From Flavobacterium limnophilum (lineage in GTDB: Bacteria; Bacteroidota; Bacteroidia; Flavobacteriales; Flavobacteriaceae): a stretch of 64,000 nt of DNA. How positions within the stretch are numbered: the first letter of the stretch is position 1; each line of letters begins with the position of its first letter. A program made the translations under genes and the position numbers. Shown one piece after another: positions 1-16,630 of this stretch. The notes below the pieces were generated by a model. The model saw only the letters and a program-made list of their open reading frames with translations. It made no database searches and was not told where the DNA came from. The stretch spans positions 3,224,001 to 3,288,000 of the forward strand of contig NZ_CP114289.2 of NCBI RefSeq assembly GCF_027111315.2, given 5' to 3'.

Positions 1-3000
1 CAATATCGGTTCCTTGACCAAATATAGAGGAGGTAGCACTGAATTCAGGATCAAATCCTAGATAATCGGTTATGGTAAACAAGTTGTTGGCAGTAGCATA
101 AAGCTTGATGGCTTTGATATAATTCATTTTTTCGACATTAAAATCATATCCCAATACCAAAGACTTCAATCTTAAATAAGAACCGTCTTCGATCCATCTG
201 TCCGAAAACTCGGCATTCCCCATTGGATCACCCCAAACGGCTTTTGGCATGTCGGTTACTTGACCTTCAGCTCTCCAGCGATTTTGCACGGCGACACTTT
301 GGTTTTCTGCACCACTCATCTTTTCAAGATTGTAACGCACTCCATTATAAAGGTCGTTTCCTACCGAGAAATTGAACAAACCTTGAAGACTAAAGCGTTT
401 ATAGGCAAAATTGGCAGAAATGCTTCCGGTTACGTCCGGGTTTGGATTACCAATCACCATACGGTCTTTATCATCAATCACTTTGTCTCCGTTGGCATCC
501 GTAAATCGCATGTCTCCACCTTTGAATGGAACTAATTCACCATTGGTCAAACGTCGAGACAATCCAGCTGACTGGGCATCTGCGGTTGTGGAATACACTC
601 CATTAGTTTGTAAACCATAGAATAAATTGGCATCTTGTCCAACGGATGTTATATAAGTGGCTCCTCCAAATTGGGTAAAAATATCACCACTAGGCAAACT
701 CTCTACTTTGTTCGAATAACTAGCCAAATTCACCCCTAAATCAAAACTAAAATCAGGACTGTTAACGATACGGGAATTTAATCCCAATTCAGCACCAAAA
801 GTTTTCATGGAACCACTATTGGAAACTACATAATCAAAACCATTTACTGAATTGATTGATTCGTACACAATCATGTTCTCGGTTTTGTTGGAATAAATAT
901 CCGAACTAATATTTAGACGTTCATTGAACAAACCAAAGTCAAGCCCCACATTGAATTTTTTCACGGTTTCCCATTCCAAGTTTGGATTTCCAATATTGCC
1001 ACGCACTAACCCCTGCATACCCAATAAATTTTGGGAAACATAATAGGTTTGTGCCGTATAATTCCCAATATCATCATTTCCGCTAGTACCAAAACCAGTT
1101 CTAAATTTTAAATAATCAATGCCTTTAACGTTTTTCATGAATCCTTCAGACGAAATCAACCAAGCTCCCGATATGGAAGTCATCAATGCAAATTTTTCTG
1201 ACCCATTTGACTCATCATCACCAAATCTACTTGATCCGTCCACCGAATAACTTGTTGTCAAGAAATATTTGTCACGGTAGTTGTATTCTGCATTGGCATA
1301 AATATTTAACCACTTCCATTCTCCCAAAGAACCGCCTACTTGACGCAATAAGTTAGATCCGGCACCTACGGAAGTAAAATCATCGGTAGAAGCATTGAAA
1401 CCCAATCCTAAATCACTTTCCGATTTATTATTTTGACTTCTCAATCCAAAACGAACATTTAAGCTATGGTCTTCTTTGAATTTTTTGGCATAATCGGCGT
1501 AGGTATCCGTATAAAGAGTGTTCAACGATTGAACTTCACCTCCAGAACGGTTCGTCCCAACGAAAAGATCATCAATAAGAATATCAGCCACCCCATGATC
1601 TGGAATAAAGAAAGTTTCACGCTCCTTGTTGAACGTTATACCAAAAATAGTGCTCAAATTCCAATCCTTGTTTATTGCAAAGTTGAATTTGAAATTTCCG
1701 AAGAAACGGTAATTGTTGTTCGTTCCAAAACCTTTCGCCAAAATTGCATTTGGGTTACTTACGTTAAAATAATCTACGTCTGCCAAGTTAGGGGATACTT
1801 CACCGTTATTATCCACCACGTGATGCGTCATGAAAGGTGATTTAGTAAGCGACAAATAGATAGGACTTGTTTTGTAAGCAAAACCTTGATCCCATTGATC
1901 CGAGATATTATTGACAAAAGAGAGATTGGCATCCATAGTCAGTCTTTGTGTCAACCTCAACACGGCATTCAAACGGGTGGTATAGCTTGTTGATTCGGTT
2001 TTATCAACGGTACCTTTACTATTGAGATAGCCAACCGACAAACCAAACTTGGCGATTTCGTCACCTCCACGAATTTTAAGAAAGTAATTTTGGTTTACAC
2101 TTGATTTAAAAACTTGGTCTTGCCAATTTGTATTATTGTGATATTGATAATATCCTGGTGAACCTACTGCATCGTTCATAAACGGCAAAGCGGCAATCTG
2201 TTGTTGGGACAAAGTACCAGTAGTTGCTGCCAATTGGGATATATGGGTACGATAAGCATCCGCTCCCAACAATGGCAACTGATCTGGAGTCTGGTTTACT
2301 CCTCCATACATGGTAAAGTCAATCTTGGTTGTCAATTCGGTAGCACGAGTAGTTGTAATATTGATCACTCCATTACCTCCTTTTGTACCATAAAGGGAAG
2401 AACCATCTTTAATTATGGTTACATCCTCTATATCTTTGACATCGATATTGGTCAAAGGAGACGACATGTTGTTTTGCACGATTCCTGAACCATAATCTTC
2501 ATCATCGTAAATCATTCCATCCACTACAATCAAAGGTTTGTTGGTGGCATACAATGAATTAAAACCACGTATTGTCATATAGGATCCGGTTCCTGGAGTT
2601 CCTGAACTTCTTACAGACGTCAAGCCTGTGGCTCTTCCTTGAAGATACCCTCCAATAGATTCATTCACGGGATTGGACCACTGCCCTTTCTCGAAATTCA
2701 CGATACTGGTCGCATTGGTATTGTCAAACTGCATTTTTTCTCCGGAAGGCAAATTAGCCACTTCATAGGAAGGAGAATAATTAGGTTCATAGAGGTAAAT
2801 TTCGATGCTTGATTTTTGTTTTTTTAAGGCATATACTTTAGTCTGATAATTTTCACCACTAATTTTAAGTTTTGCGTCGAGATTGGGAACTCTAACTTCA
2901 AAGGTTCCGTCATTATTCGTAATGGCGGCAGAAAAGCCGTCAACAGCCACATTTATCCCTGAGAGTCCCAGTTTGGTTTTTGCGCTTTTAACAACACCTT

Positions 3001-3154
3001 TAACCTTGGTTCCTTTTGCATTATTCGGACTGGCGGTTGGAATTACTTTTACAACCTCAGTTGAATCCTGAACGGTCTGCGCGCACAACTGCATACTAAG
3101 ACTTCCAGCAAAGAACAGGCTTACCACGCAGCTTATTTTTAAATTGTTTAACAT
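1..3154 (-). CDS. SusC-family TonB-dependent transporter, cut by the left window edge
   Basis: Outer-membrane glycan importer of the SusC/RagA type. From ATG at 3154 the minus strand stays open for 1,051 codons to the edge. A Sec signal peptide (MLNNLKISCVVSLFFAGSLS, cleavage near LCAQ) is followed by a carboxypeptidase-regulatory-like beta-sandwich (about residues 45-125), a plug domain (about 150-275, with LIVVDGMIYDDED and GTKGGNGVINITT) and a long beta-barrel. The last readable part contains NNLFTITDYLGFDPEF, a conserved segment close to the SusC C-terminus, so only some 20-30 residues are missing. It starts 21 nt after a FAS1 gene and is the last visible gene of the operon beginning at 13518. 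Its SusD partner should lie just outside the window. The substrate is unknown. Confidence 0.93.
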   Translation of the reverse strand, partial: MLNNLKISCVVSLFFAGSLSMQLCAQTVQDSTEVVKVIPTASPNNAKGTKVKGVVKSAKTKLGLSGINVAVDGFSAAITNNDGTFEVRVPNLDAKLKISGENYQTKVYALKKQKSSIEIYLYEPNYSPSYEVANLPSGEKMQFDNTNATSIVNFEKGQWSNPVNESIGGYLQGRATGLTSVRSSGTPGTGSYMTIRGFNSLYATNKPLIVVDGMIYDDEDYGSGIVQNNMSSPLTNIDVKDIEDVTIIKDGSSLYGTKGGNGVINITTTRATELTTKIDFTMYGGVNQTPDQLPLLGADAYRTHISQLAATTGTLSQQQIAALPFMNDAVGSPGYYQYHNNTNWQDQVFKSSVNQNYFLKIRGGDEIAKFGLSVGYLNSKGTVDKTESTSYTTRLNAVLRLTQRLTMDANLSFVNNISDQWDQGFAYKTSPIYLSLTKSPFMTHHVVDNNGEVSPNLADVDYFNVSNPNAILAKGFGTNNNYRFFGNFKFNFAINKDWNLSTIFGITFNKERETFFIPDHGVADILIDDLFVGTNRSGGEVQSLNTLYTDTYADYAKKFKEDHSLNVRFGLRSQNNKSESDLGLGFNASTDDFTSVGAGSNLLRQVGGSLGEWKWLNIYANAEYNYRDKYFLTTSYSVDGSSRFGDDESNGSEKFALMTSISGAWLISSEGFMKNVKGIDYLKFRTGFGTSGNDDIGNYTAQTYYVSQNLLGMQGLVRGNIGNPNLEWETVKKFNVGLDFGLFNERLNISSDIYSNKTENMIVYESINSVNGFDYVVSNSGSMKTFGAELGLNSRIVNSPDFSFDLGVNLASYSNKVESLPSGDIFTQFGGATYITSVGQDANLFYGLQTNGVYSTTADAQSAGLSRRLTNGELVPFKGGDMRFTDANGDKVIDDKDRMVIGNPNPDVTGSISANFAYKRFSLQGLFNFSVGNDLYNGVRYNLEKMSGAENQSVAVQNRWRAEGQVTDMPKAVWGDPMGNAEFSDRWIEDGSYLRLKSLVLGYDFNVEKMNYIKAIKLYATANNLFTITDYLGFDPEFSATSSIFGQGTDI

Positions 3155-3175: not shown

Positions 3176-4654
3176 TTATTTAATTTCAGGAACGAATTTC
3201 AAATAATCAAGAGTAAGAGAGTTGTTCCCGTTTACCGTGTTATTTGCGGCTACTAATGAAATCAAATCGATATCAATTGCTTGTGCCAATGTAAATTCTC
3301 CTAGATAAACTTCAGTATAATTATTAAGCTCCACATTTGTAAGAGGTACATCATATAAAACACCAATCTGTGTAGTTACCGTATTGACTACTGCCCATTT
3401 CCCACCTATGCGTAGTCTTTGTTGAAAAACATTCGCTTGTCTGTCATTTATGGCTCTCCAATACACTTTGTATTTAGTGCTGAAAAAATCTTTATCTTTA
3501 TACATCAAAGTAAACTCAGCTTTACCGGGATCTTGCACCATGATATCATTGTAGAATACCCCAAATGGATCCACCTTGTCGCGATAAAAAATCTTGTTAC
3601 GGGATCCCCAATATCCAGAATTGTTTTCCCCTTCGATTTTTTTGGTCAATAAACGTTTTGCAAGAGAAACATCCACTTTTTTCATTATGTAAACAATACC
3701 ATTGCTCAAGCGAATGGGCTGCCCCACAATTTGAGTTTTGTCTATCGGAACTTCAACCCCGAATCTTGAAGTCAAAGTGGCAGGCAGGTTATTAAGCTCA
3801 TACTTTTTACCAAAAGCCATATCTCTTAACGTGAAATATTTTGAATAAATAGCCGTAGAGTCAATAGCTGGATCATTAGATTTTTTAATCAAGTAAGGTT
3901 TCATCTTGTCCACTTCGGCATTGTATCCATCATCCTCCATTAAAAACAAGGTATAGGAGTTTTTCTCGTTGTTCAGGTTGTAAACATTTTTCAAATAAGA
4001 ATTAGACAAGGAATCGGAATAAATTCCTGGAGATGCAGCAGCAGTTTCTTTACTAGTAATATCAGATGCATAGATGCTGAACTCTTTTAAACTCAACAAA
4101 TAATCACTCATGGCAGAAGTAGCCGCTTTTGAATTGATGTATTGCCAAATGTTCATTTTAGGTGTCAGTGCTTTATCTATGACGTGAAACACTCCATTGG
4201 CCGCATAATGATTTGCATTGACAATAGTCGCATCATCAATCAAGGTAGCTCCCTTGAATACCAGATATTTGGTACTGAACATTTTTATTTGCGTTTCCTC
4301 CGTACCTCTCACGGAAGAAAAGGCTGTCAAGGCAATATGATTGCCAACAAATTCCTTTAGTGCTTCAGGATCATTCAAGATGGCAGAATCTACTTGGGCC
4401 ATAGCCTCATTGGTAGGAACAAAAACGGTATATGTTTTTGAGGCAGCCAAAATTGTATCGTAACCTGTTTCGACTAATAGTTTTGTAAACTCGGATGTTC
4501 CTGCCATATTTGTTATGGCCACATCCAGTGTAACCTTTAGGTTGGCATCGTCAATTTCCTGACGCTCGTCCCAAGGACTGGAACATGAGACTAAAGTCAT
4601 AATAGTCAGCACACCAACCAATAGTCTCTTATATTTTAATTTTAATAAACTCAT
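3176..4654 (-). CDS. FAS1 (fasciclin) lipoprotein with C-terminal beta-sandwich
   Basis: Probable surface lipoprotein. The ATG at 4654 gives a clean lipoprotein signal (MSLLKLKYKRLLVGVLTIMT, lipobox LVSC). ATGs at 4708 and 4678 are in frame but would put a hydrophilic extension before the signal, and 4708 would overlap the upstream gene, so 4654 is preferred. Residues about 30-170 form a typical FAS1 domain (TYTVFVPTNEAMAQ, then NGVFHVIDKAL). Residues about 170-335 are a degenerate second copy ending in NGIVYIMKKVDV. The last 150 residues look like a CBM6-type jelly roll (TKYKVYWRAIND, closing with LTLDYLKFVPE). There are no catalytic motifs. It sits between another FAS1 gene and a SusC gene, where Bacteroidota operons usually encode a surface glycan-binding protein. 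That role is inferred from position and architecture. Confidence 0.85.
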   Translation of the reverse strand: MSLLKLKYKRLLVGVLTIMTLVSCSSPWDERQEIDDANLKVTLDVAITNMAGTSEFTKLLVETGYDTILAASKTYTVFVPTNEAMAQVDSAILNDPEALKEFVGNHIALTAFSSVRGTEETQIKMFSTKYLVFKGATLIDDATIVNANHYAANGVFHVIDKALTPKMNIWQYINSKAATSAMSDYLLSLKEFSIYASDITSKETAAASPGIYSDSLSNSYLKNVYNLNNEKNSYTLFLMEDDGYNAEVDKMKPYLIKKSNDPAIDSTAIYSKYFTLRDMAFGKKYELNNLPATLTSRFGVEVPIDKTQIVGQPIRLSNGIVYIMKKVDVSLAKRLLTKKIEGENNSGYWGSRNKIFYRDKVDPFGVFYNDIMVQDPGKAEFTLMYKDKDFFSTKYKVYWRAINDRQANVFQQRLRIGGKWAVVNTVTTQIGVLYDVPLTNVELNNYTEVYLGEFTLAQAIDIDLISLVAANNTVNGNNSLTLDYLKFVPEIK

Positions 4655-4694
4655 TTTTACTTGATTAAGTTTGTACATGTACACTTTTATAATT

Positions 4695-6476
4695 TTAATA
4701 ACCAGCATTACTGTTATCGCCTAATTTGGCATCTTCCCTTTGAACTAAATTACTAACCCCTGGCACTGGAACTCCTTTTTTGAATTTCGGCCATATTTGA
4801 TCCATGTCCACAGGACGGAATTCTACCAAGTCCCATCTGTCTGCATCACCTCCAGCGCAACCGGGACAAACATCAGTAACAAATTTAATTGTATGTCTTC
4901 CGGTTGTTGGCACTTCAACGATACCTACCAATCTGGAAAGAACATTATCATTTTTGACGTATGGAAAGATATAACGTTTGTAGCCTTGCGACTCATAAAC
5001 CCTGTCCGTTATACCTGTGGTAGCATTACTAGGATCATTAGCATATTCTCTTCCGTTTAGAATTCTGGAGGTTTGTTCTCCATTAAAAAATACTTTTGTA
5101 GTGTTAGAAGCCTTAGCATTTTGACGAAAAGAAACCCATATTTTATAACGTCCTTTGATAATTACCGGAGTTTTAAATTCAATATCATTCAAACCTCCTG
5201 GACCTGTACGGAAACGGAAAGGTCTTATTAAATCCCCATTGACTCCTCCACTATAATTATTCCAATCCATAGTATATGTTTTACTTCCTGTCCAGGTAAC
5301 ATTAGCAAGTCCCCCTAATGGAAAACCGAAAGATGCACCGGTGGATTTTCTGTAATTGGCCACATTTGCCGCCATTTCGGGTTGATCACACAAATCAAAA
5401 TAAACCGGCGATGGAAGACGTTTTTTTATGGAGAAGTTTACATCCACATAATGCAATACTCCATTGGAAGCAGTAACATCACTAAGCTGTCTTAATATGG
5501 GAGAACCTTCTTCCAGTACTCCATTAAAAACATCACGGTTCAAATAGATGACATCCTTCAACAATTTGGCACTAACCACTTCAAGAGGTGCTTTGGTCAC
5601 GAAAACCGGTGTAGTCGCCATATCGGCCAAGTAATTCAATTGAGGCAATACACGATATTGTACAAACAAATTCAAACTATCCGCCGGATTCATTGGATCT
5701 GCCGGTTTCAATGGATCCGTTGGTTTGCTGTATCTAGCTTTCAAATCTTCCAAATTATTGAAACCTGCTTTAGCAAACACCTCGTTGGTTTGCGCCAAAA
5801 CTGTTAGATGACTGCCTACTTTATTGGCATCGTAAGTAAGGGGCTGATTCAATTTGTCGTACCATCCAGTAGCTTTCAAGACTTCGGTAAACAAAGAAAG
5901 ATTTGCATCGGCTTCGATGGTCTGTGCCAAGGTCTTGTCGGCCACACGCAACACTTTATCGATAATATGGATAACGCCATTCCCCAACTCTACATTGGAA
6001 GTTACAATTCTTGCCGTTTTATTGATCGTTTCACTGGAAACCCCATCGATGGTGGTCGCTCCAGTTATTAGATACTGCCCGTACATACTAGGTGTCGCAA
6101 TCTTTCCATCGGTAAAAAGATTGGTGTTTATTCTCGCTTCCAAAATATGCAGTTTGGCTATATTTTGCAAATCAACCAATGGCACGTCTTTCAATGAATT
6201 GGCACCCACATCTTTTAAATATTGTTTCACCGCTTCATTGGTTGGAAGAAACATGGTATAAGTACCGTAGGTATTCATGAATGAAGCATAGTGGGTCAAA
6301 TCCAAGATTTCCAAAAACATGGAGTAATCTGGATTTTCTCTTAAATATTCCGTTATGTTAAGAGTTTCGTCGGTACTTTGTTTAATCTCTAGTTGAGAAC
6401 AGTTCTGAAATACTAAAGCTACAAAAAACACTAAAGTAAGTCTCACTAGGCTAGTTAATCTTAATAATCTTTTCAT
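4695..6476 (-). CDS. Two-domain FAS1 lipoprotein with CBM6-like C-terminus
   Basis: A 593-residue lipoprotein (signal MKRLLRLTSLVRLTLVFFVA, lipobox FQNC). FAS1 domain 1 spans about residues 40-193 (TYTMFLPTNEAVKQYL, NGVIHIIDKVLRV). Domain 2 spans about 200-360 (LTVLAQTNEVFAKAG, NGVLHYVDVNFSI) and carries a proline-rich PTDP/PADP insertion near residue 250. Residues about 365-565 resemble a CBM6-type sandwich: GRYKIWVSFRQN, KVFFNGEQTS, TTGRHTIKFVTD and RWDLVEFRPV follow the order of core strands seen in such modules. It lies 11 nt after SusD and 40 nt before the next FAS1 start, so it is cotranscribed. FAS1 domains are generally adhesion modules. A surface glycan-binding role is inferred, and no substrate can be assigned. 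Confidence 0.87.
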   Translation of the reverse strand: MKRLLRLTSLVRLTLVFFVALVFQNCSQLEIKQSTDETLNITEYLRENPDYSMFLEILDLTHYASFMNTYGTYTMFLPTNEAVKQYLKDVGANSLKDVPLVDLQNIAKLHILEARINTNLFTDGKIATPSMYGQYLITGATTIDGVSSETINKTARIVTSNVELGNGVIHIIDKVLRVADKTLAQTIEADANLSLFTEVLKATGWYDKLNQPLTYDANKVGSHLTVLAQTNEVFAKAGFNNLEDLKARYSKPTDPLKPADPMNPADSLNLFVQYRVLPQLNYLADMATTPVFVTKAPLEVVSAKLLKDVIYLNRDVFNGVLEEGSPILRQLSDVTASNGVLHYVDVNFSIKKRLPSPVYFDLCDQPEMAANVANYRKSTGASFGFPLGGLANVTWTGSKTYTMDWNNYSGGVNGDLIRPFRFRTGPGGLNDIEFKTPVIIKGRYKIWVSFRQNAKASNTTKVFFNGEQTSRILNGREYANDPSNATTGITDRVYESQGYKRYIFPYVKNDNVLSRLVGIVEVPTTGRHTIKFVTDVCPGCAGGDADRWDLVEFRPVDMDQIWPKFKKGVPVPGVSNLVQREDAKLGDNSNAGY

Positions 6477-6487
6477 GACTTATTTTT

Positions 6488-7999
6488 TTATTTATAAAAT
6501 GGATTTTGTACTAATGCTTTATTGGTAAAAAGTTCATTCGTGTTAATAGGCAAATAATGACTATTTGGGTCTCTCAATTTTGCAACAATGGACTGTTGTT
6601 TGTCAACCGGCGCAGTAGCTATTGCAATATCGATCAATATTTGTAAACGTTCGTAATTATTGGCACGGGCAATACGCAATACATCATACCAGCGTTTGCC
6701 TTCAAAAGCAAACTCTCTAGCACGTTCTGCCAAGATAAAATCTATAATGGCATTTGTGTCACCTTCACCTGGAGCCAAGTCCGTTTCAACAAGAGCTTTA
6801 CGGTTCAATCGAAGATTGGTAATAATTTCAATTGCTTCTTTACCTTGACCCAATCGTGTCAAAGCTTCGGCTTTCATCAACAGTACCTCCGGATAACGAT
6901 AAACAAACCAGTGTGTATCGGAATCCTGCAACTCTTTTCTATCATCATTGTTTAAACCGGTAAATTTGTAAATTTCGCCAGTTGCCCCGATCAATGACGC
7001 AAAATTTCCACGAAAATCTCTTTTACCGATAGGATCGTTGGCATCATATCCATAAACCTCTTCCATCATCAGTTGATATGCCTTAAAATGTGGTTGCTGA
7101 TAAAAGATACCATAAAACGGTCCTCGATTAGCCTTGGTGTATTGAAATTCAAAGATACTTTCAGACGAATTTCCATTGGCAAAAATAGCACTAAAAAAAG
7201 TGTTGGAAGAATTGGTTTCCACCAACTTGAATTTACCGGAATTAACCACCTTGTTTGTTTCAGCAAGTGCCTCTGTGTAATTTTCTGTCCACATATACAC
7301 ATCTGCCAGCATCGTATTTATAGTATATTTGGTGATGCGTCCTTTGTTTGAAGGAATGTTTCCATAATCTTCCTTGGCATATCCTTCGGCCAATTTCAAA
7401 TCTTTGATTACTTGGGCAAAAACTTCAGCTTGTTTTGAAACAGGCAATTGAAAATCATCCTTGTCAGAAAGTGTGGCAGTTAATTTCAATGGCACATCTT
7501 TGAAGGTACGCGCCAAAGTAAAGTACAAATAAGCCCTGATGGCCAATGCCTCGGAAAGGAAATTTTCCAATTGGACTTGGGTCAAGGTTGGATCCTCATT
7601 TTTAACCGCTGGTGCCAAATCAATAACCGTATTGCAATAATTAATGGTTCTATAAAAGATGGACCAGTCAGTCAAATCATTGGATGGAAGAACATTGGTT
7701 TCAAAAATATCTCTTTCATCTTCGGTGGCATTGATTCCCTCGACAACCATTCCTCCCCTTAATTCACCGTGCATAAACAAGTATTGGGTCATCGTCAAAT
7801 CGCCCACGCCAGGAGGCGAGTTCAACAAAGAGGAATAAATCCCAATTACGGCAGCTTGAATATCCTCCTTGGTTTTCCAGAATTCATCACGAACGATTCC
7901 ATCCTGTGGACGTAAATCTAAATAACTGTCGCACGAACTTGCCGAAACGAAAAGTATAAAGAGGGCTAATATTGTTTTTAGTTTAGTTTGCATAATCAA
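6488..7999 (-). CDS. SusD/RagB-family glycan-binding lipoprotein
   Basis: Cell-surface lid of the SusCD importer. The signal peptide ends in lipobox SASSC and is followed by DSYLDLRPQDGIVRDEFWKT, the usual SusD N-terminus. TPR-like helices come next (LAIRAYLYFTLARTFKDVPL; INTMLADVYMWTENYTEAL), and the C-terminal RagB signature is present (FILAERAREFAFEGKRWYDV, then HYLPINTNEL). At 503 residues it is normal for the family. It begins 12 nt after its SusC partner and is followed 11 nt later by a FAS1 lipoprotein. Translation could also start at the second Met (7993) without changing the signal peptide. The substrate is unknown; the family match is certain. Confidence 0.95.
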   Translation of the reverse strand: MIMQTKLKTILALFILFVSASSCDSYLDLRPQDGIVRDEFWKTKEDIQAAVIGIYSSLLNSPPGVGDLTMTQYLFMHGELRGGMVVEGINATEDERDIFETNVLPSNDLTDWSIFYRTINYCNTVIDLAPAVKNEDPTLTQVQLENFLSEALAIRAYLYFTLARTFKDVPLKLTATLSDKDDFQLPVSKQAEVFAQVIKDLKLAEGYAKEDYGNIPSNKGRITKYTINTMLADVYMWTENYTEALAETNKVVNSGKFKLVETNSSNTFFSAIFANGNSSESIFEFQYTKANRGPFYGIFYQQPHFKAYQLMMEEVYGYDANDPIGKRDFRGNFASLIGATGEIYKFTGLNNDDRKELQDSDTHWFVYRYPEVLLMKAEALTRLGQGKEAIEIITNLRLNRKALVETDLAPGEGDTNAIIDFILAERAREFAFEGKRWYDVLRIARANNYERLQILIDIAIATAPVDKQQSIVAKLRDPNSHYLPINTNELFTNKALVQNPFYK

Positions 8000-8011
8000 T
8001 TATTTTATTTT

Positions 8012-11000
8012 TTAAAAACGAGTTGTAACACCAAATGTGAGACGTTGTGTAGGTGGTGTTGAAGCATTGTCGATAGCCATACCGAAAGGCCCGGAACTCA
8101 TGCTCACCTCAGGATCTTGTCCGCGATAATTTGTCCAAGTGTACAAGTTGTCAGCCGTTAGATAAAAACCTAAATCATCCAGATTTAATTTCTTCAACAT
8201 TTCTTTTCCAAGATTATAACGAAAGGTAACCGAACGAAGACGTAAAAAAGAAGCATCTTCCACATAACGGTCAGAACCCAACCAGTTGTATCCTGCACCA
8301 TAAACCGCTCTAGGCATATTGGTCTCATCACCCGGATTACGCCATCTATCCAAAACAGCCGTACTTTGATTGCTGTATCCATACATATTGGTCGTTTTCA
8401 TGTCTGTTCCGTTAACGATGTCATAATTCATGCGGTAGTTAAAGTACAACAATAATCTAAACTGATTGTTGAAGGTAATGTTGGGACCAAATCCCCCTGT
8501 GATTTTAGGGTTGCTGTTTCCTAAATACACCACGTCACGGCTGTCGATATTACCATCTTTATTGATGTCCTCATAAATGGCATCTCCAGGTTGGAATACA
8601 TAATCCGTATTGGGATAATTAAAACGCATCAAGACTTCTTGACCGTTAGGCCCCAGAATAACATCTCCATTGGCGTCTTTGGCCTTTGTTGCTTCAAGGT
8701 CTTTATAAACCCCCTTGAATTTATAACCATAAAATGAACCAAAAGGATTGTCCACTTGAAGGAAACGTTTGAATTCTCCGTTTTTATCGGTGTTACCACT
8801 TTCAGCTGGGTAAAACTCCGATATCTCCGTAATCATGTTTTCATTGCTGGCAATGTTGAAGTTGAAATCCACCTTCCATTTACCAGATTTATAAGGAGTA
8901 GTATTAAGACCTATCTCCCATCCTTGATTTTTCATGTTTCCCGCATTCATATCGGAAATAATGTTGTAACCTGAAAGCGAACTTACCTGAATTTTTGGGT
9001 AAAGAAGATCTTCGGTAATGTTTTGATAAAAATCGACATCCAAGGACACACGTTTTTTAAACAGTTGCAAGTTGAACCCAATGTTTTTACCTGTTAAAGT
9101 CTCCCAACGCAAATTGGTCAATTCCATATTTATAGGAACAACCCCGTTCATGTCCAAATAGGAAGTTTCGTAATTATCATACACATTAAAATAAAGGTAA
9201 CTACCTTTAGGTGCCCTGCCTGATTTTCCATAACTCATTCTTAAACTCAAATCATCCACATATTCCAATTTCTCCATGAAGGACTCACCCGAAACCCTCC
9301 AACGGGCAGACACGGAAGGAAACAAACCATATCTGTTCTCAGGTCCGAATTTTGAATTACCATCACCACGCAAACCAACATTCACGATATAACGATCCAA
9401 CAAACCATATTGGGCGCTCAACAATGCCCCTACAGTTCTAGCTTGACTACTGCCGGTAGATAATCCCAAGCCCGATTCTCGTGTTCGCGATGGATTCGAC
9501 GGATCCGTAAATAGGGACGAAGCCGTATTTGAGGTTAACGCCTTGTACGAAGCATAACGGGAATCATTTGTTTGCAAGGACAAAATAGTCTGCAATGTTT
9601 GGTTTTTACCGATGGTTGGTGTATAAACAACGTTTGTTTTTGTAATAATGCTGGAAGCATCACCATCAGAATCAGAAGCCCTGTTCACCACAGTTTCCGT
9701 AAAAGGACGTCCGGTGGCATTTTGTGGCAAGAAGTCTTTTGTCTTGGTACTGCTGTAATCAAATTGCACATCAAAGGTGGACAATAATATCTTGGGAATG
9801 ATATCCACATTCACGTTAAAGTGAGGCGTGATACGCTGATTTATTTGATCGTTAATTGCGAACTCCGCCATGGCGGCCGGATTATAAGTGCCCGAATAAG
9901 TACCTTGCACATTTGAAACCGGTGAAAAATAATTTGGAGTAAGTTCTCCCAACGAATCAAATTCATAGAGACTCATGTTTGGCATTTTTACATAGGCAAC
10001 ACCTCTTAATCTGTCCTTGTCGTTATTATCGCTAAAACTATTAACATAATTACGCTTGGTGTAGCTATGGGTATAGGACAAATCCGTTCTAAATTTAATA
10101 CGACTGGAAACCCTGTAATCCAAGTTCAATCTGGTACTGATTCTTTCCAACCCAGTTCCAATGGTTACCCCTGTGGAATTATAATAGCCCACGGAACTAT
10201 AGTAACTTGCTTTTTCCCCTCCTCCTTGTAGAGCAAGGTTATGTTCATTCGTCAAACCGATTTGGGTGATGGCATCAATCCAATCGGTGTTTTGACTGTA
10301 ATTTTTATAATAATAAACATCTTGAGGGTCATACTGGAACTCTTTTACATTCAAAGTATTCAATGGCACCCCATTTCTGTTCATGTATTCTTCTGGAATC
10401 AATTGTGAATATTGATCTCCATTCAACATTGGTATAGTAGGAGGCAATTTGGAATAACTTCCTTTATAGGTATAGGTGATTTTTGGAGCACTTACCCCTC
10501 CACGCTTGGTGGTAATCAAGATAACCCCACTGGCCGCTTTGGATCCCCAAACCGCTGTTGCTGCAGCATCTTTCAAAATAGTAATCGTTTCAATGTCGGT
10601 AGGTGCAATATTCAATAAGGCGGCATAGCCTTGATCATCGGCACTGGCAAAGTTGAAATCTTGTGGGATTTCTGTTTCGTATGGCATACCATCCACCACT
10701 ACCATAGGTTCAGAAGAACCAGAGATTGAAGAAGTACCACGAATACGAATTTGCATTCCGGCACCTGGATCTCCACTGGTGGCCGTAATATCCACACCGG
10801 CCATACGTCCTTGCAAAGCTTCATCAATAGATGCCGCTTGGGTATAGGCCAAATCTGCAGCACTAATCGTAACCGAACTGGTCGTTTTATCTCGATCGGC
10901 AATATTCATTAACCCTGAATTACCACCCTTCTTTTCAGCCGTGATAACAATCTCTTTCAATGATTCAGTACTGGAAACCAATTTAACTTTAATCATTTCG

Positions 11001-11299
11001 CGACCATTGATTGGCACCGTTTGGGATTTATATCCAATGGTTGAAATAAATAACTTGTTGTTGGGATTTTTTACGCGTATGGCAAAATTCCCGTCAATAT
11101 CCGTAATCACCCCTGTCACGGTACGACCTTCTCCATCTTGTTCTACAATAGTAGCCCCTGGTATGGATAAATTATCGCCTGCATCGACTATCTGGCCTCG
11201 CACCAACAAACCTTTGCTTTGAGCCAACGCAGGCAGCGTTGCCAACAAAACGAGGGCTATTGTAAAACTGTAAAATATATTTTTGATTAGTTGTCTCAT
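8012..11299 (-). CDS. SusC-family TonB-dependent transporter of the FAS1 operon
   Basis: Full-length 1,095-residue outer-membrane transporter. It has a signal peptide (MRQLIKNIFYSFTIALVLLA, cleavage after ALAQ) and a carboxypeptidase-regulatory-like domain at about 30-115. A TonB-box-like LKEIVITAEKKGG is followed by a plug at about 125-265 (MQIRIRGTSSISG, PMVVVDGMPYETE, WGSKAASGVILITTKRGG) and a beta-barrel ending in LTFGVTTRF, with the terminal Phe expected for barrel insertion. It starts 14 nt after the four-domain FAS1 gene and is followed 12 nt later by SusD, so it pairs with that SusD. The operon contains a second SusC at its far end, so two importers are expected. Confidence 0.96.
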   Translation of the reverse strand: MRQLIKNIFYSFTIALVLLATLPALAQSKGLLVRGQIVDAGDNLSIPGATIVEQDGEGRTVTGVITDIDGNFAIRVKNPNNKLFISTIGYKSQTVPINGREMIKVKLVSSTESLKEIVITAEKKGGNSGLMNIADRDKTTSSVTISAADLAYTQAASIDEALQGRMAGVDITATSGDPGAGMQIRIRGTSSISGSSEPMVVVDGMPYETEIPQDFNFASADDQGYAALLNIAPTDIETITILKDAAATAVWGSKAASGVILITTKRGGVSAPKITYTYKGSYSKLPPTIPMLNGDQYSQLIPEEYMNRNGVPLNTLNVKEFQYDPQDVYYYKNYSQNTDWIDAITQIGLTNEHNLALQGGGEKASYYSSVGYYNSTGVTIGTGLERISTRLNLDYRVSSRIKFRTDLSYTHSYTKRNYVNSFSDNNDKDRLRGVAYVKMPNMSLYEFDSLGELTPNYFSPVSNVQGTYSGTYNPAAMAEFAINDQINQRITPHFNVNVDIIPKILLSTFDVQFDYSSTKTKDFLPQNATGRPFTETVVNRASDSDGDASSIITKTNVVYTPTIGKNQTLQTILSLQTNDSRYASYKALTSNTASSLFTDPSNPSRTRESGLGLSTGSSQARTVGALLSAQYGLLDRYIVNVGLRGDGNSKFGPENRYGLFPSVSARWRVSGESFMEKLEYVDDLSLRMSYGKSGRAPKGSYLYFNVYDNYETSYLDMNGVVPINMELTNLRWETLTGKNIGFNLQLFKKRVSLDVDFYQNITEDLLYPKIQVSSLSGYNIISDMNAGNMKNQGWEIGLNTTPYKSGKWKVDFNFNIASNENMITEISEFYPAESGNTDKNGEFKRFLQVDNPFGSFYGYKFKGVYKDLEATKAKDANGDVILGPNGQEVLMRFNYPNTDYVFQPGDAIYEDINKDGNIDSRDVVYLGNSNPKITGGFGPNITFNNQFRLLLYFNYRMNYDIVNGTDMKTTNMYGYSNQSTAVLDRWRNPGDETNMPRAVYGAGYNWLGSDRYVEDASFLRLRSVTFRYNLGKEMLKKLNLDDLGFYLTADNLYTWTNYRGQDPEVSMSSGPFGMAIDNASTPPTQRLTFGVTTRF

Positions 11300-11313
11300 T
11301 TTATTCGGTAAAT

Positions 11314-13518
11314 TTAAGGTAATAGGTAATTGTCCACTAAATGGATTAGGGATCTATCTGCTAGGTTGTTGCTGCTGGCCGGGATAAAATTGGCAGCCGG
11401 ATTATTTCCTGAATTATCTTTAAATGACAAGGTTGCAGGGGCACTTGTCACTCCAACATAGGTTTTATCACCTTTTGTATCTTTCATCAAGGTTTCTTGT
11501 TGCCCTGTTATATTCCCATCATTTGAAATCGTTTTATTATTTATGATATGGAAGCGAATAAAATCGGCAATCAAATCCTTTTCTCCTTGTGATGCCGGAT
11601 TATTTGATGCAGGAAGTACTTTAGCCGTAACCGCTCTTGCCATTGCCGCTTTATTAGGAATCAAGAAAGTATAAGAACTCCCCAAGGCCACACCCTCAAT
11701 TTTCCCTGTGGCCGCAGTGTAAATAGTGGAATTTTTCAAATATTGATAAAAAGTATCAAATTCTGGATTGGCAGCCGCTAAACGTGCAATTGCCAAACCT
11801 TGCAATTCAATGGAATATTCCGGGAACTTGTCAACATAATACGCAATACCGTTTTGCTGCACTTCCTTGCCTATAACATTGGCAGGAACCCCACCCGGCA
11901 CAATATCTCCTGCCGCATAAATTTTGTTGTTGCTCCATTTGATGTACTCTCCAGGAAGCTCGTCATCGCCGGTGCGAATAACTCCAGAAGTAGATGCAAT
12001 ATCATCCAACTCCCCATTTGGTGTTTGCACAATGCAATTATAAAAAAGTCGCAACAATCTATTTTTGGCACCAGTACCTGTTTCGACTGCTCCATTTATG
12101 GGAGAAACATACCTCCAATAGGAATGTGTGGTATCGAAATCAAAACCAAGAGACCTCAATATGGCATCAGAAGGCAAGAATATGGTGTACTTTTTATTGA
12201 TGTTGCTAATCATTTCTTTGTAACCGGAACCTTCATTATATATCTTGGTTGCATAAGTATATTTAGGATCCAAATAAGCCGTAGTATAAACACTGTAAAA
12301 CAAATTTGATTTTTGAACTTTGTTGGCTCCATAAAAGAATCCGTTACTCAACACTTTTTTATCCGTGATGTCGTTGTTAAAATCAAATCTTATTTCCTCG
12401 CCCAAACCATTCACATAATCATCTTTCAACGTTGGCCAAACTGCAGATTGTACCATGTGGGCATTAACCAAATCTTGAAAAATATATTTAGGCAATACGT
12501 CAATAGAAGGATAATTTTTGAGCAACACTGTATTTATAAAAGTTTGCAAAGGACCATTTTCAGGAACAATCATGGTATAAGCATCCGCTTGTCCATCATT
12601 ATCTTCCGCCTTTACGTAATTTTCATTGTTAGGTGCAAATTTCAAAGTAGCATCATACATTTTTACAAAAACATCATCCGATTTCTTGGTATAATTACGA
12701 TAAGTAGTGGTAGCCGTTTGATTAAAAACATAAGTAACCAAATTCTTTTCCATAAGACTGTGAAACAGACTGTAATTTGAGTTTTGTTCCAGATACTGGT
12801 CGATATTCACGGGAGGAAGATTTACTTTATCCAACTCATGAATAAGTCCATTTTCAGCGATAATATCGGCCTCGGCGACTTTTGAATCCAAAACATTGAA
12901 TTCCGTGTATTCAACACCAGGATAGAAATAATTGAAATCAAGAGCACTCAAGCGTTTCGACGCAAAATGCTCATCGGTGAAATAAGTGACATACTTATTG
13001 TTGTTGTCTCCAGAAACATAGGGGGTAAAACCGTTACGGTTCATACCCACAATCACTTTTGGCTCACCATTTATGATTTTATCCTGAAAACCGTCATAAT
13101 ATGCGGTTCTTCTTCGATAAGCAACATCTACTACCCATCCTTTACTAGATTGATAATCCGAAAGCTGCTCCTTACGAAAACCATTATATATAAGTGCATA
13201 TTTCACGATTTTACCAGCAGTAATTGAATCTACTTTGCTGGCATCCGAAAACCCTTTTTCTTGAAAAAACTTGGCAAAAGCCGCATCATTGGGAGCCATC
13301 ATCGTCCAATATCCTGATTTACTCAAGATATCTTTATAACCTGCCTTTGCTATTAGAGTTGTCAGGCTTTTAAAATTACCACGCGCCTCCAATTGTTGGT
13401 AAATTGGATCTTCAAGACCAGCTGGACGCTCATAGTACGGATCCAACTCTTGACTACAACTGGCAAAAAGGGCCAGTAGCGGAAGGACAAATAAATAATA
13501 GTGTAGTTTCTTCTTCAT
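11314..13518 (-). CDS. Four-domain FAS1 lipoprotein, first gene of the left SusCD operon
   Basis: A 734-residue lipoprotein (signal MKKKLHYYLFVLPLLALFAS, lipobox FASC, then SQELDPYYERP). Four consecutive FAS1 repeats fill the protein. Copy 1 is at about 40-235 (GYWTMMAPNDAAFAKFF, NGLIHELDKVNL), copy 2 at about 237-410 (AYTMIVPENGPLQTFI, NGFFYGANKVQ), copy 3 at about 412-570 (KYTIFLPSDAILRSLG, NGIAYYVDKFPEYS), and copy 4 at about 575-734 (SYTFLIPNKAAMARAV, RSLIHLVDNYLLP). Each keeps the FAS1 pattern of a TxFxPxNxA-like H1 box and a late NGxxHxVDK-like strand, with divergence in copies 2 and 3. It leads the operon and ends 14 nt before SusC. FAS1 proteins are adhesins in other systems; here it may act as an outer-surface glycan receptor, which is inference. 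Confidence 0.88.
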   Translation of the reverse strand: MKKKLHYYLFVLPLLALFASCSQELDPYYERPAGLEDPIYQQLEARGNFKSLTTLIAKAGYKDILSKSGYWTMMAPNDAAFAKFFQEKGFSDASKVDSITAGKIVKYALIYNGFRKEQLSDYQSSKGWVVDVAYRRRTAYYDGFQDKIINGEPKVIVGMNRNGFTPYVSGDNNNKYVTYFTDEHFASKRLSALDFNYFYPGVEYTEFNVLDSKVAEADIIAENGLIHELDKVNLPPVNIDQYLEQNSNYSLFHSLMEKNLVTYVFNQTATTTYRNYTKKSDDVFVKMYDATLKFAPNNENYVKAEDNDGQADAYTMIVPENGPLQTFINTVLLKNYPSIDVLPKYIFQDLVNAHMVQSAVWPTLKDDYVNGLGEEIRFDFNNDITDKKVLSNGFFYGANKVQKSNLFYSVYTTAYLDPKYTYATKIYNEGSGYKEMISNINKKYTIFLPSDAILRSLGFDFDTTHSYWRYVSPINGAVETGTGAKNRLLRLFYNCIVQTPNGELDDIASTSGVIRTGDDELPGEYIKWSNNKIYAAGDIVPGGVPANVIGKEVQQNGIAYYVDKFPEYSIELQGLAIARLAAANPEFDTFYQYLKNSTIYTAATGKIEGVALGSSYTFLIPNKAAMARAVTAKVLPASNNPASQGEKDLIADFIRFHIINNKTISNDGNITGQQETLMKDTKGDKTYVGVTSAPATLSFKDNSGNNPAANFIPASSNNLADRSLIHLVDNYLLP

Positions 13519-13590: not shown

Positions 13591-13635
13591 CAAATTTATG
13601 CCTTAGTATCACTACCTCTATCCTGCTCTATCCTG
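13591..13635 (-). promoter_or_regulatory. Putative activator-dependent promoter of the FAS1-SusCD operon
   Basis: On the minus strand a perfect TAnnTTTG -7 element (TAAATTTG, 13591-13598) lies about 75 nt before the ATG at 13518. No TTG is present at the -33 position. Instead a perfect tandem 10-bp direct repeat, CAGGATAGAG twice, occupies 13616-13635, beginning 17 nt upstream of the -7 element. In-phase direct repeats at a defective -33 box are what AraC-type DNA-binding domains (as in hybrid two-component systems) typically use for activation. The -7 element and the repeat are visible; the mechanism is inferred. Confidence 0.45.
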
Positions 13636-14392: not shown

Positions 14393-16630
14393 CTATTTTA
14401 CGGCAACTACAACTTCAGCCATTTTAGGAGCTCCCAATTCGAAACTTTTTTTCATCGGACTGGAACCACCCACATATATTTTGAAGTCTCCCGACTCTAT
14501 AATTCTGGAACCATCATTTTTTACCATTTCGAATGCTTTGGGAGTCAGCTGAAAGGAAACTTCGGTAGATTCTCCGGGTTCCAATGTGATTCTCTTTATA
14601 TTCGTCAATTGAAAATTGGGCACAACAACCGAAGCCTCCAAATCAGAAACATACAATTGCACCACTTCATCTGATTTCACTTTGCCCGAATTGGTCACTT
14701 TTACTGAAACGCTGAGATTGTCTTTTCTGGAAATTGTTTTTGACGAAACTTTGGCTTCGCCATAAACAAAATTGGTATAACTTAATCCAAACCCAAAGGG
14801 ATATAATGGCTCTACATTCAAATATTTATAAGTTCTTCCTTTCATCGAATAATCTTCAAAAGGGGGCAGTTGGTCTAAAGATTTAGGGAATGTAATCGGC
14901 AACTTTCCAGAAGGCGATATTTTTCCAAAAACAACATCCGCAACAGCAGTTCCTCCTTCTTCGCCGGGATACCAAACGAGCAATACAGCATCGGCCAATT
15001 CTTGAACTTCCGCAAGATTCATCGGGCTTCCGCCAGTAATTACGGCTACAATCGGTTTTTTGTTGTTGGGGTCTTTATCGGCAGTTATTCTTAATTCTTT
15101 CAAATAATTGATTTGATTTTGAGGTAAATCATAGTCCAATCTGTCTCCAGCCGTTGAAGAATCCAACGAATCTCCTTCTTCCCCTTCTATTGTGCTCGAA
15201 ACACCCAATACTACAATGGTCACATTACTGTCACCAGCATTTCCGGTAGCATAATTTATGGGATTTATGGATTTTTGATTCAGCATTGCTCCCAATCTGT
15301 ATTGCAATTGACTGGCCGGACTTATTGAAGCCGTAATGCCTTCGAGAATAGTAACCATATTAGGGTTTATTCCATAATAATTTCCTAAAAGCACTTCTAT
15401 ACTAGCAGCATTTGGCCCAGTGACAAAATATTTGGAAAGGTCATTTTTTAAAGGTAAAACTCCATTGTTTTTCAATAAGACCATACTTTTTTGAGCTACT
15501 TCCCTAGCCAAAACTCTATGAGATTCACTATTTACAACATTTGATGGAATAGCATCATAAGGATTGCTGCCCATTGGATCAAACAAACCCAATTTGAACC
15601 TTATTTTTAACAAAATTGCCAACTGATTGTCGATTTCTTTTTCCGTAATCAACCCCTCTTTGACCGCTTGAGGCAAGGCTTTGTAGGAGCTTCCACAATT
15701 GAGACTCACACCACTTTTTACCACTAATGCTGCGGCCTCGGCTTCAGTTTTAACCGTTCCGTGTCCTCCTTTGTCTTTGGGAATATAAAAATCGTCTATC
15801 GCTCCACAATCCGTTACTATATGTCCTTTAAAATTCCATTTTTTTAACAAAACATCCGAAATCAGGTATTTATTGGCACAACAAGGTTCGCCATCGGCAC
15901 TGTTGTAAGCACACATAACCGATTCCACTTTGGCTTCGACCTATGCTTGAAATGCCGGCAAATAGGTTTCCCAAAGGTCCTTTTGTGAGACTTCGGCATT
16001 GAATTCGTGACGCAATTTTTCTGGTCCACTATGCACGGCATAATGTTTGGCGCAAGCCGCAGTTTTCAAATAATTGGTATTATCTCCCTGCAACCCTTTT
16101 ACGAATGCGGCTCCAATGCTGGCGGTCAGAAAAGGATCTTCGCCATAGGTTTCCTGACCACGACCCCATCGAGGATCTCGGAAAATATTGATGTTTGGAG
16201 TCCAAAAAGTCAATCCACCGTATTGTTTGTTATAGCCTTTGGCTTTTGCAACATTGTGCATTGCTCGGGCTTCATCAGAAATTGCAGTCGAAACCCTGAA
16301 TGCCAAATCCGAATCGAAAGTGGCTCCTAGTCCAATCGCTTGAGGAAAAACGGTTGCAACTCCCGAACGCCCCACGCCATGAAGTGCTTCATTCCAATAA
16401 TCATAAGGCACAATGTTTAATCGCTTAATTTCAGGAGTACCATTCATCATTTGATCCGATTTTTCTTCTAAAGTTAATCTTGAAATCAAGTCCTTAATTC
16501 TTGCATCAATAGAAAGTGATGGATTATTAAAAGGCATAGCCTGATTTTTTTTGTCAACTGTTTGACTCCTGATTGGAAGAATAGCGAACAATAAAAAAAA
16601 AAGTGTTATTTTTTTTAAAAGAGTATCCAT
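14393..16630 (-). pseudogene. GH3 beta-xylosidase-type gene interrupted by an in-frame amber codon
   Basis: The frame encodes about 745 residues of a periplasmic GH3 enzyme that removes xylose from xylo-oligosaccharide ends. The signal peptide is MDTLLKKITLFFLLFAIL with cleavage near IRSQ. The GH3 N-domain has NEALHGVGRSG and FPQAIGLGATFD, typical of xylosidases. The catalytic nucleophile is D274 in VTDCGAIDDF. The C-domain (about 360-570) has AVITGGSPMNLAE, and a fibronectin-III-like end follows. A TAG at 15941-15943 interrupts the frame just after ETYLPAFQA; the next codons read VEAKVESVMCAYN, so reading frame and homology continue exactly. It is a point nonsense change, not a frameshift. 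The 229-residue N-fragment lacks the nucleophile. A downstream GTG (15928) could start a 511-residue fragment without a signal. Sequencing error or suppression is possible. Confidence 0.88.

What the first reader, a model, noticed from the sequence alone, without database searches (positions are those of the whole stretch)
3176..13518. FAS1-domain lipoproteins in place of usual glycan-binding proteins in a double-SusC operon
Seen: one operon holds three lipoproteins built from FAS1 repeats (four, two, and one plus a degenerate copy) together with SusC, SusD and a second SusC, and no glycosidase. Two of the three end in a CBM6-like sandwich (GRYKIWVSFRQN ... RWDLVEFRPV; TKYKVYWRAIND ... LTLDYLKFVPE). 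Known: FAS1 domains mediate adhesion, and the slot after SusD normally encodes a surface glycan-binding protein. Inference: this is an uptake system whose surface receptors are FAS1-based. It lacks the operator shared by the xylan units, so its substrate may not be xylan.
Basis: partly seen in the sequence, partly recalled or inferred. Interest (0 to 1): 0.72.

Follow-up and report, generated by a model that had tools for sequence, protein, structure and literature searches.

The report
FAS1 lipoprotein cassette with two SusCD pairs
A fixed set of seven genes, found in Flavobacterium and in a second bacterial family, builds two outer-membrane sugar importers plus three surface proteins made of fasciclin (adhesion-type) domains, and its switch and neighbours suggest, without proving it, that it takes up pieces of pectin rather than xylan.

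Summary
The operon (minus strand) is FAS4 – SusC1 – SusD1 – FASa – FASb – SusC2 – SusD2, where FAS4, FASa and FASb are FAS1 lipoproteins. SusD2 lies just outside the window, so this is a double SusC/SusD cassette. It holds no glycosidase. Models of FASa and FASb show FAS1 folds and CBM6/CBM35-type C-terminal sandwiches. The order is kept in 18 of 18 Flavobacterium genomes and 5 of 5 loci of a second family read in full. In 22 of 22 Flavobacterium upstream regions a 10-bp-period repeat CAGGATANNNCAGGATA (exact in 20) stands 20 bp before TAnnTTTG. In 150 Flavobacterium genomes the exact 18-bp operator occurs 11 times: 7 before this cassette, 3 before other SusC genes (2 beside GH106), 1 before a pectate-lyase-like protein. 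Near-matches in this genome precede mostly rhamnose and pectin genes; in the second family 4 of 5 loci have rhamnose or pectin genes beside them. Best reading: uptake of pectin (rhamnogalacturonan-type) fragments through FAS1-armed surface lipoproteins. xylA/xylB genes beside the cassette in 9 of 18 genomes, and a GH115 gene in one second-family locus, keep a xylose/glucuronate substrate open. Glycan binding is untested. New variant of a known kind (Sus-like systems).

The parts
11314..13518 (-). FAS4: 734-aa lipoprotein of FAS1 repeats (3 stretches by Pfam, 4 by motif), first gene
   Evidence: ORF; PF02469 81.5 bits; profile comparison; orthologues
8012..11299 (-). SusC1, TonB-linked outer-membrane transporter, 1095 aa
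   Evidence: TIGR04056 723.9 bits (cut-off 368.25); best PDB sequence match 8aa4_A
6488..7999 (-). SusD1, 503 aa (listed start is TTG; an ATG follows two codons later)
   Evidence: PF07980 92.5 bits; best PDB sequence match 9sje_B
4695..6476 (-). FASa: lipoprotein, two FAS1 domains + C-terminal CBM-type beta-sandwich (about residues 354-559)
   Evidence: PF02469 80.3 bits; model mae0f1d5beb3f mean pLDDT 85.1; fold matches
3176..4708 (-). FASb: lipoprotein, two FAS1 domains (second not seen by Pfam) + CBM6/35-type beta-sandwich (about residues 353-510); start probably at 4654
   Evidence: PF02469 70.6 bits; model m85ba9340b0c3 mean pLDDT 86.5; fold matches; start from alignment
2..3154 (-). SusC2 (1068 aa in full), runs off the left end of the window; followed outside the window by SusD2 (580 aa, G000:C1:3222177-3223919)
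   Evidence: TIGR04056 597.8 bits for the part in the window; whole gene and SusD2 in L009; SusD2 PF07980/PF14322 over cut-off; 29% identical to SusC1
13618..13635 (-). Operator: 10-bp-period direct repeat CAGGATAGAGCAGGATAG
   Evidence: the repeat at the same place in 22 Flavobacterium upstream regions (20 exact, G159 one mismatch, G394 two)
13591..13598 (-). TAnnTTTG element (TAAATTTG), presumed -7 promoter box, 20 bp after the operator
   Evidence: same 20-bp gap in 22 of 22; that TAnnTTTG is the Bacteroidota -7 box is recalled

Best explanation
The seven genes are one transcription unit for a surface machine that takes up fragments of an acidic, rhamnose-containing plant polysaccharide, most likely pectic rhamnogalacturonan. 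FASa and FASb sit on the cell surface as lipoproteins: the CBM6/CBM35-type sandwich at the C-terminus catches the glycan, while the tandem FAS1 domains, the better-conserved part, act as the arm that docks on the SusCD transporters or on each other. FAS4, all FAS1, would be a linker or scaffold. SusC1/SusD1 and SusC2/SusD2 import two fragment types. Enzymes are encoded elsewhere in the regulon and are switched on together through the CAGGATA direct repeat, probably by an AraC-type (hybrid two-component) activator. Shown: gene content and order, conservation, the repeat, predicted domain folds. Inferred: one transcript, surface exposure, complex formation, substrate, regulator, glycan binding.
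Against: xylA and/or xylB genes lie beside the cassette in 9 of 18 Flavobacterium genomes, and gntR with an SDR gene in a tenth, in three arrangements (XylA confirmed by TIGR02630 here and in G196, XylB best match TIGR01312 but below its cut-off). Here a GH67/GH10 xylan cluster lies upstream, and in G203 a GH115 gene, a family known from xylan, is the next gene before FAS4. GH67 is also enriched (6 of 8 against 27 of 142, p 0.0015). Neither count corrects for relatedness. The family PF06045 occurs in only 2 of the 8 cassette genomes. In G226 no copy of the repeat was seen before rhaT, and in G226 and G342 the cassette repeat has two mismatches. G342's neighbours are only esterases. No binding, expression or growth data. 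An HTCS gene beside the cassette was recognised in one genome only. The scaffold role of FAS1 has no direct evidence.
Confidence: 0.53

Rival explanations
1. The cassette imports glucuronoxylan or another xylose-containing oligosaccharide; the flanking xylose isomerase/xylulokinase and UxuA-type genes are its catabolic partners, and the two SusCD pairs echo the xylan (xus) systems of Bacteroidetes.
For: xylA and/or xylB beside the cassette in 9 of 18 genomes: downstream on the same strand here, divergent in relatives, convergent in G196, so not the inheritance of one junction. GH67/GH10 next door here, GH115 next door in G203. GH67 enriched. NrtR/AraR-type regulator beside SusD2 in 4 other genomes; such regulators are assigned to xylose and arabinose genes in B. 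thetaiotaomicron (PMC3878776, passages seen). Tandem SusC/SusD is the core of xus systems (PMC3747994, passage seen).
Against: The operator class sits mostly before rhamnose/pectin genes; no other site with up to two mismatches lies in the window, whose xylan promoters carry another palindrome. xylA/xylB were not matched in the five second-family loci (20-30 kb each). G196 (one contig, 100% complete) has the cassette but no GH67.
Confidence: 0.27
2. The substrate is another acidic heteroglycan that contains rhamnose, uronic acid and xylose together (rhamnogalacturonan II, plant mucilage, or an algal ulvan-like polymer), which would reconcile both neighbourhoods.
For: Rhamnose/uronate genes share the operator; xylose and UxuA genes are neighbours; GH115 stands with GH28/GH88 in G203. 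A distant cousin cassette sits among sialic-acid-type genes, so the architecture may be general for acidic sugars.
Against: No enzyme specific to such a glycan was identified or sought; the sugar compositions are recalled.
Confidence: 0.15
3. The FAS1 proteins are adhesins that hold cells to plant material and only share the operon with a transporter.
For: FAS1 domains are best known from adhesion proteins and match TGFBIp/periostin by fold; multi-FAS1 proteins with no SusCD near occur in other Bacteroidota (7 of 7 loci of the family f38 read).
Against: Co-conservation with two SusCD pairs in a fixed order, CBM-type sandwiches on two of the three, and FAS1-CBM96 proteins after SusCD elsewhere.
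Confidence: 0.05

Closest known systems
Levan and dextran utilisomes of Bacteroides thetaiotaomicron (PMC7618045, abstract and outline seen)
   Same: SusCD core on which further surface lipoproteins assemble; SusC1's best PDB sequence match is 8aa4_A, a SusC homolog
   Different: Those are four-component complexes with a glycan-binding protein and a glycoside hydrolase; here two SusCD pairs, three FAS1 lipoproteins, no enzyme in the operon; complex formation untested
Rhamnogalacturonan-I locus of B. thetaiotaomicron, BT4164/65 - SGBP BT4167 - BT4168/69 - lyase BT4170 (review PMC8002723, passages seen)
   Same: Two SusCD pairs with a surface glycan-binding protein numbered between them; pectin substrate
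   Different: Whether BT4166/BT4167 hold FAS1 domains could not be tested here; a lyase belongs to that locus; the review text has no occurrence of 'fasciclin'
xus xylan-utilization core (xusA/B/C/D-xusE-xyn10C; PMC3747994, passage seen)
   Same: Two SusC/SusD pairs in one unit
   Different: FAS1 genes lie between the pairs and at the front; no GH10 gene in the unit
NanO/NanU sialic-acid uptake
   Same: SusD1's best NCBIfam match is NanU, 90.8 bits; a distant FAS1-SusC-SusD-FAS1-SusC-SusD cassette sits among sialic-acid-type genes in G457, and a like one in G198
   Different: NanU's cut-off is 425 bits, so SusD1 is not NanU; no sialic-acid genes were seen beside this cassette
Human TGFBIp / periostin
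   Different: 17-25% identity; bacterial lipoproteins with CBM-type ends; the high rmsd over two domains suggests another domain angle

Membership tests
Sus-like (SusCD) outer-membrane uptake system | SusC/RagA-family TonB-linked transporter | tested here: met
   TIGR04056 723.9 and 597.8 bits, cut-off 368.25
Sus-like (SusCD) outer-membrane uptake system | SusD-family lipoprotein directly after each SusC | tested here: met
   SusD1 PF07980 92.5 bits; SusD2 PF07980 37.7 and PF14322 36.8 bits, both over cut-off
Sus-like (SusCD) outer-membrane uptake system | Glycan transport | not testable with these tools
   needs growth, binding or structure of the complex
Polysaccharide utilization locus with its own enzymes | Carbohydrate-active enzymes within the same operon | tested here: not met
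   no glycosidase, lyase or esterase among the seven genes
FAS1 (fasciclin) domain proteins | PF02469 above the curated cut-off in each of the three proteins | tested here: met
   70.6, 80.3 and 81.5 bits, cut-off 22
FAS1 (fasciclin) domain proteins | FAS1 fold | tested here: met
   FASa and FASb models only; FAS4 was not modelled
CBM6/CBM35-type carbohydrate-binding modules | CBM6/35-type beta-sandwich fold | tested here: met
CBM6/CBM35-type carbohydrate-binding modules | Sequence match to a CBM family model | tested here: not met
   no CBM family among Pfam matches at E up to 1
CBM6/CBM35-type carbohydrate-binding modules | Binds carbohydrate | not testable with these tools
   needs affinity gel, ITC or glycan array
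DUF5108 (PF17133) | Match above the curated cut-off | tested here: not met
   FASa 20.4 bits, 22 bits in the genome search; cut-off 27.4
xus xylan-utilization core | Two tandem SusC/SusD pairs, then xusE and a GH10 xylanase | tested here: not met
   FAS1 genes between the pairs, no GH10 gene in the unit
HTCS-controlled locus | Hybrid two-component regulator with AraC-type HTH beside the operon | tested here: inconclusive
   present in G196; most other flanking genes were judged by reference matches or sequence prefixes, not by Pfam

The most novel reading that the evidence does not exclude
FAS1 domains form a class of surface scaffold for SusCD uptake in Bacteroidota: a 'double utilisome' in which three FAS1 lipoproteins bridge two SusCD transporters and hold CBM-type heads above them. 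The plan would have been reused for different acidic glycans: pectin in the seven-gene cassette, sialic acid in a distant FAS1-SusC-SusD-FAS1-SusC-SusD cousin, and single SusC-SusD-FAS1/CBM96 triads elsewhere.
Probability: 0.38. Interest if true: 0.68.

Novelty: new variant of a known kind. Interest (0 to 1): 0.52.

Why it matters
A conserved cassette in which the place of the surface glycan-binding protein is taken by adhesion-type FAS1 proteins, with a diagnostic promoter, gives a substrate hypothesis that one RNA-seq or pull-down could settle. It would also give bacterial FAS1 proteins, annotated in the names seen here only as 'fasciclin domain-containing' or similar, a concrete job. Pectin is reported to enhance colony spreading of Flavobacterium and to induce selected SusC/D operons (PMC8056085, abstract and passages seen).

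Tried and rejected
Papers joining FAS1/fasciclin with SusC/SusD, PULs, TonB, xylan or pectin in Bacteroidetes: searches; in listings and passages seen none described a FAS1-SusCD operon; the nearest were a reference-list hit (PMC10199937) and an adhesion remark (PMC7661554). This covers only the held open-licence library. PDB by sequence: no Bacteroidota FAS1 protein recognisable among the molecule names listed. DUF5108 as the identity of the FASa C-terminus: below cut-off. FAS4 quarter 3 found no support in profile comparison. Plain Foldseek search: machine busy, not repeated.

Rejected: (1) 'Double SusC' – SusD2 lies outside the window. (2) The GntR beside xylBA as the obvious binder of CAGGATA – the gntR leader carries a different conserved element; but GntR genes also stand divergent from rhaT here and from the SusC in L088, so it is not excluded. 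(3) Stop codons in the G005 FASa match – the match ran past the gene's own stop; the ORF is whole. (4) The FAS1 loci of the family f38 as relatives of the cassette – no SusCD near in 7 of 7 read.

Counting notes. The 18 genomes read for order are G000, G051, G196 and L049-L063. F. flevense = G005, F. fluviatile = G066, F. limi = G060 by equal contig lengths, counted once. L064 and G031 (probably the same MAG, cut by contig ends) are left out of the 18; L064 is among the 22 upstream regions (the 18, L064, G159, G394, G530). G159, G394 and G530 were not read for gene order. GH67 counts use the 33 genomes over the cut-off; G025, below it, was dropped. Models used 109 of 120 listed FASb homologues and 95 of 120 FASa homologues, thinned by me, plus the query. 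One search used every second listed homologue.
Full report
WHAT IS THERE. The window is G000:C1:3224001-3288000 of a 4.5-Mb genome. The 16 loci found by FASa in the named collection are 15 Flavobacterium and one Flavobacteriales MAG. On the minus strand, from 13518 past the left edge, run FAS4 (734 aa), SusC1, SusD1, FASa (593 aa), FASb (510 aa), SusC2 and, left of the window, SusD2. Gaps are 11-28 bp except at FASa/FASb, where the listed ORFs overlap but the alignment suggests a later FASb start. None of the seven is a glycosidase. Left of SusD2 come a LacI-type regulator on the other strand, then GntR, xylulokinase-type XylB, xylose isomerase XylA and a sodium/solute symporter (XylA over its cut-off, XylB best match TIGR01312 at 296.8 bits, cut-off 380). 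Right of FAS4 lie a GH3 gene broken by a stop and a GH67/GH10 xylan cluster.

CONSERVATION. The order is kept in 18 of 18 Flavobacterium genomes read in full and in 5 of 5 loci of 4 genomes in another family of the same class (G342, G442 twice, G226, G203). Most of these were found through FASa or FAS4. In one set of 395 Bacteroidota genomes, full-length FAS4 and FASa occur in the same 8 genomes, 9 copies each; of the weaker matches I read 21 loci, and two of them are the nan-type cousin below. In 150 Flavobacterium genomes FAS4 is in 8, so it is a patchy accessory cassette.

THE SWITCH. Upstream of FAS4 lies CAGGATANNNCAGGATA, followed after exactly 20 bp by TAnnTTTG, in 22 Flavobacterium regions: exact in 20, one mismatch in G159, two in G394. 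The 18-bp form CAGGATANNNCAGGATAG has 11 exact sites in 150 genomes, 0 for the reversed control: 7 before the cassette; 3 before other SusC genes (G159 and G196 divergent from GH106, G008 divergent from a GntR gene); 1 before a secreted protein in G183 that is 71% identical over 438 residues to the protein behind a one-mismatch site here, whose best NCBIfam match is pectate lyase PelZ (E 1.1e-29, below its cut-off). Second-family loci: exact in G442 (both copies) and G203, two mismatches in G226 and G342. In the own genome: one exact site and seven with one mismatch (control 1). Genes behind the seven: rhaT operon, SASA esterase, GH43 (divergent from GH28), a protein with a rhamnogalacturonate-lyase domain, a protein without Pfam match (L070), the pectate-lyase-like protein, and a SusC. 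A 10-bp direct repeat suits AraC-type proteins (recalled); G196 has a full HTCS with such a domain divergent from the cassette. The xylan region of the window carries a different, LacI-like palindrome.

SUBSTRATE. For pectin: the operator class; second-family neighbours – rhaT, RhaD (TIGR02632 over cut-off), an L-rhamnose-isomerase-like and an FGGY kinase gene with GntR (G226); GH88, GH95, GDSL esterase, PL22 and GH106 (G442, first copy); a pectate-lyase-like gene (second copy); rhamnogalacturonate lyase, GH28 and GH88 (G203); only esterases in G342; GH88 near xylA in G005; GH106 in 8 of 8 cassette genomes against 25 of 142 (p 2.6e-6). For a xylose/glucuronate glycan: xylA and/or xylB beside the cassette in 9 of 18 (L051, L052, L055, L058, L061, L063, G000, G051, G196) and gntR with an SDR gene in L059, in three arrangements; UxuA in L063; an NrtR/AraR-type regulator beside SusD2 in 4 others (L053, L056, L057, L062; Pfam in G066 = L053 only); GH115 as the next gene before FAS4 in G203; GH67 in 6 of 8 against 27 of 142 (p 0.0015). 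L049, L050, L054 and L060 show neither. Both enrichments ignore relatedness and may only mark plant-glycan users. PF06045 lyases occur in 3 of 150 genomes, 2 with the cassette. I weigh pectin at 0.53, xylan 0.27, a mixed acidic glycan 0.15.

COUSINS. G457 and G198 hold FAS1-SusC-SusD-FAS1-SusC-SusD; in G457 it stands among a BNR-repeat protein, an N-acetylneuraminate-epimerase-type protein, an MFS transporter and a DHDPS-family (lyase-type) gene, which I read as sialic-acid use; G198 was judged by matches and prefixes only. G330 and G198 also hold SusC-SusD followed by one FAS1 protein, and both of these carry CBM96 above its cut-off: a FAS1 arm with a named carbohydrate-binding module in the slot after SusD. 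G442 has three FAS1-like proteins in a row (one confirmed by Pfam).

COMPARISON. It works like a Sus-like uptake locus with surface lipoproteins (utilisomes, PMC7618045, abstract and outline seen). The nearest plan is the B. thetaiotaomicron rhamnogalacturonan-I locus with two SusCD pairs and an SGBP numbered between them (PMC8002723, passages); whether that SGBP has FAS1 domains I could not test. Among the 14 control genomes FAS1 rings in 4, Bacteroides ihuae not among them, and DUF5108 in none (B. ihuae is shown to be a control). The open-licence paper searches found no report of FAS1-SusCD operons.

VERDICT. Observation confirmed and extended; interpretation partly supported; a new variant of a known kind with a testable substrate and regulator hypothesis.

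Noticed in passing
window:14393-16630 (-): A GH3 gene is interrupted by one in-frame TAG at 15941-15943, giving two ORFs.
   Followed up: partly
window:14147-14392 (-): A short remnant resembling the start of a SASA-type esterase, without the rest of the gene (likeness judged by eye).
   Followed up: partly
window:16723, 30211, 45806: LacI-like palindrome GCAAYCGRTTGCG at three promoters of the xylan region; 6 strand matches with up to one mismatch against 0.12 expected. A LacI-type regulator gene lies just left of the window.
   Followed up: partly
L009:6817 upstream and L051, L052, L055, L058, L061, L045: The gntR-xylBA operon has a conserved element ACCGGAACAGAACAG near the start codon in 7 genomes (a weaker form in L059), a possible autoregulatory site.
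   Followed up: no
L137 (G457), L139 (G198): A distant FAS1-SusC-SusD-FAS1-SusC-SusD cassette, in G457 among genes that look like sialic-acid use, including an N-acetylneuraminate-epimerase-type protein.
   Followed up: partly
L183:7174-13276 (G330), L187:3070-9008 (G198): SusC-SusD-FAS1 triads whose FAS1 protein also carries CBM96 and a cadherin-like domain, all above cut-off.
   Followed up: partly
L185:4973-8278 (G442): Three FAS1-like proteins in tandem between large TonB-type genes (one confirmed by Pfam).
   Followed up: no
L132 and L130 (G442): One genome carries two diverged copies of the seven-gene cassette, both with the exact repeat.
   Followed up: no
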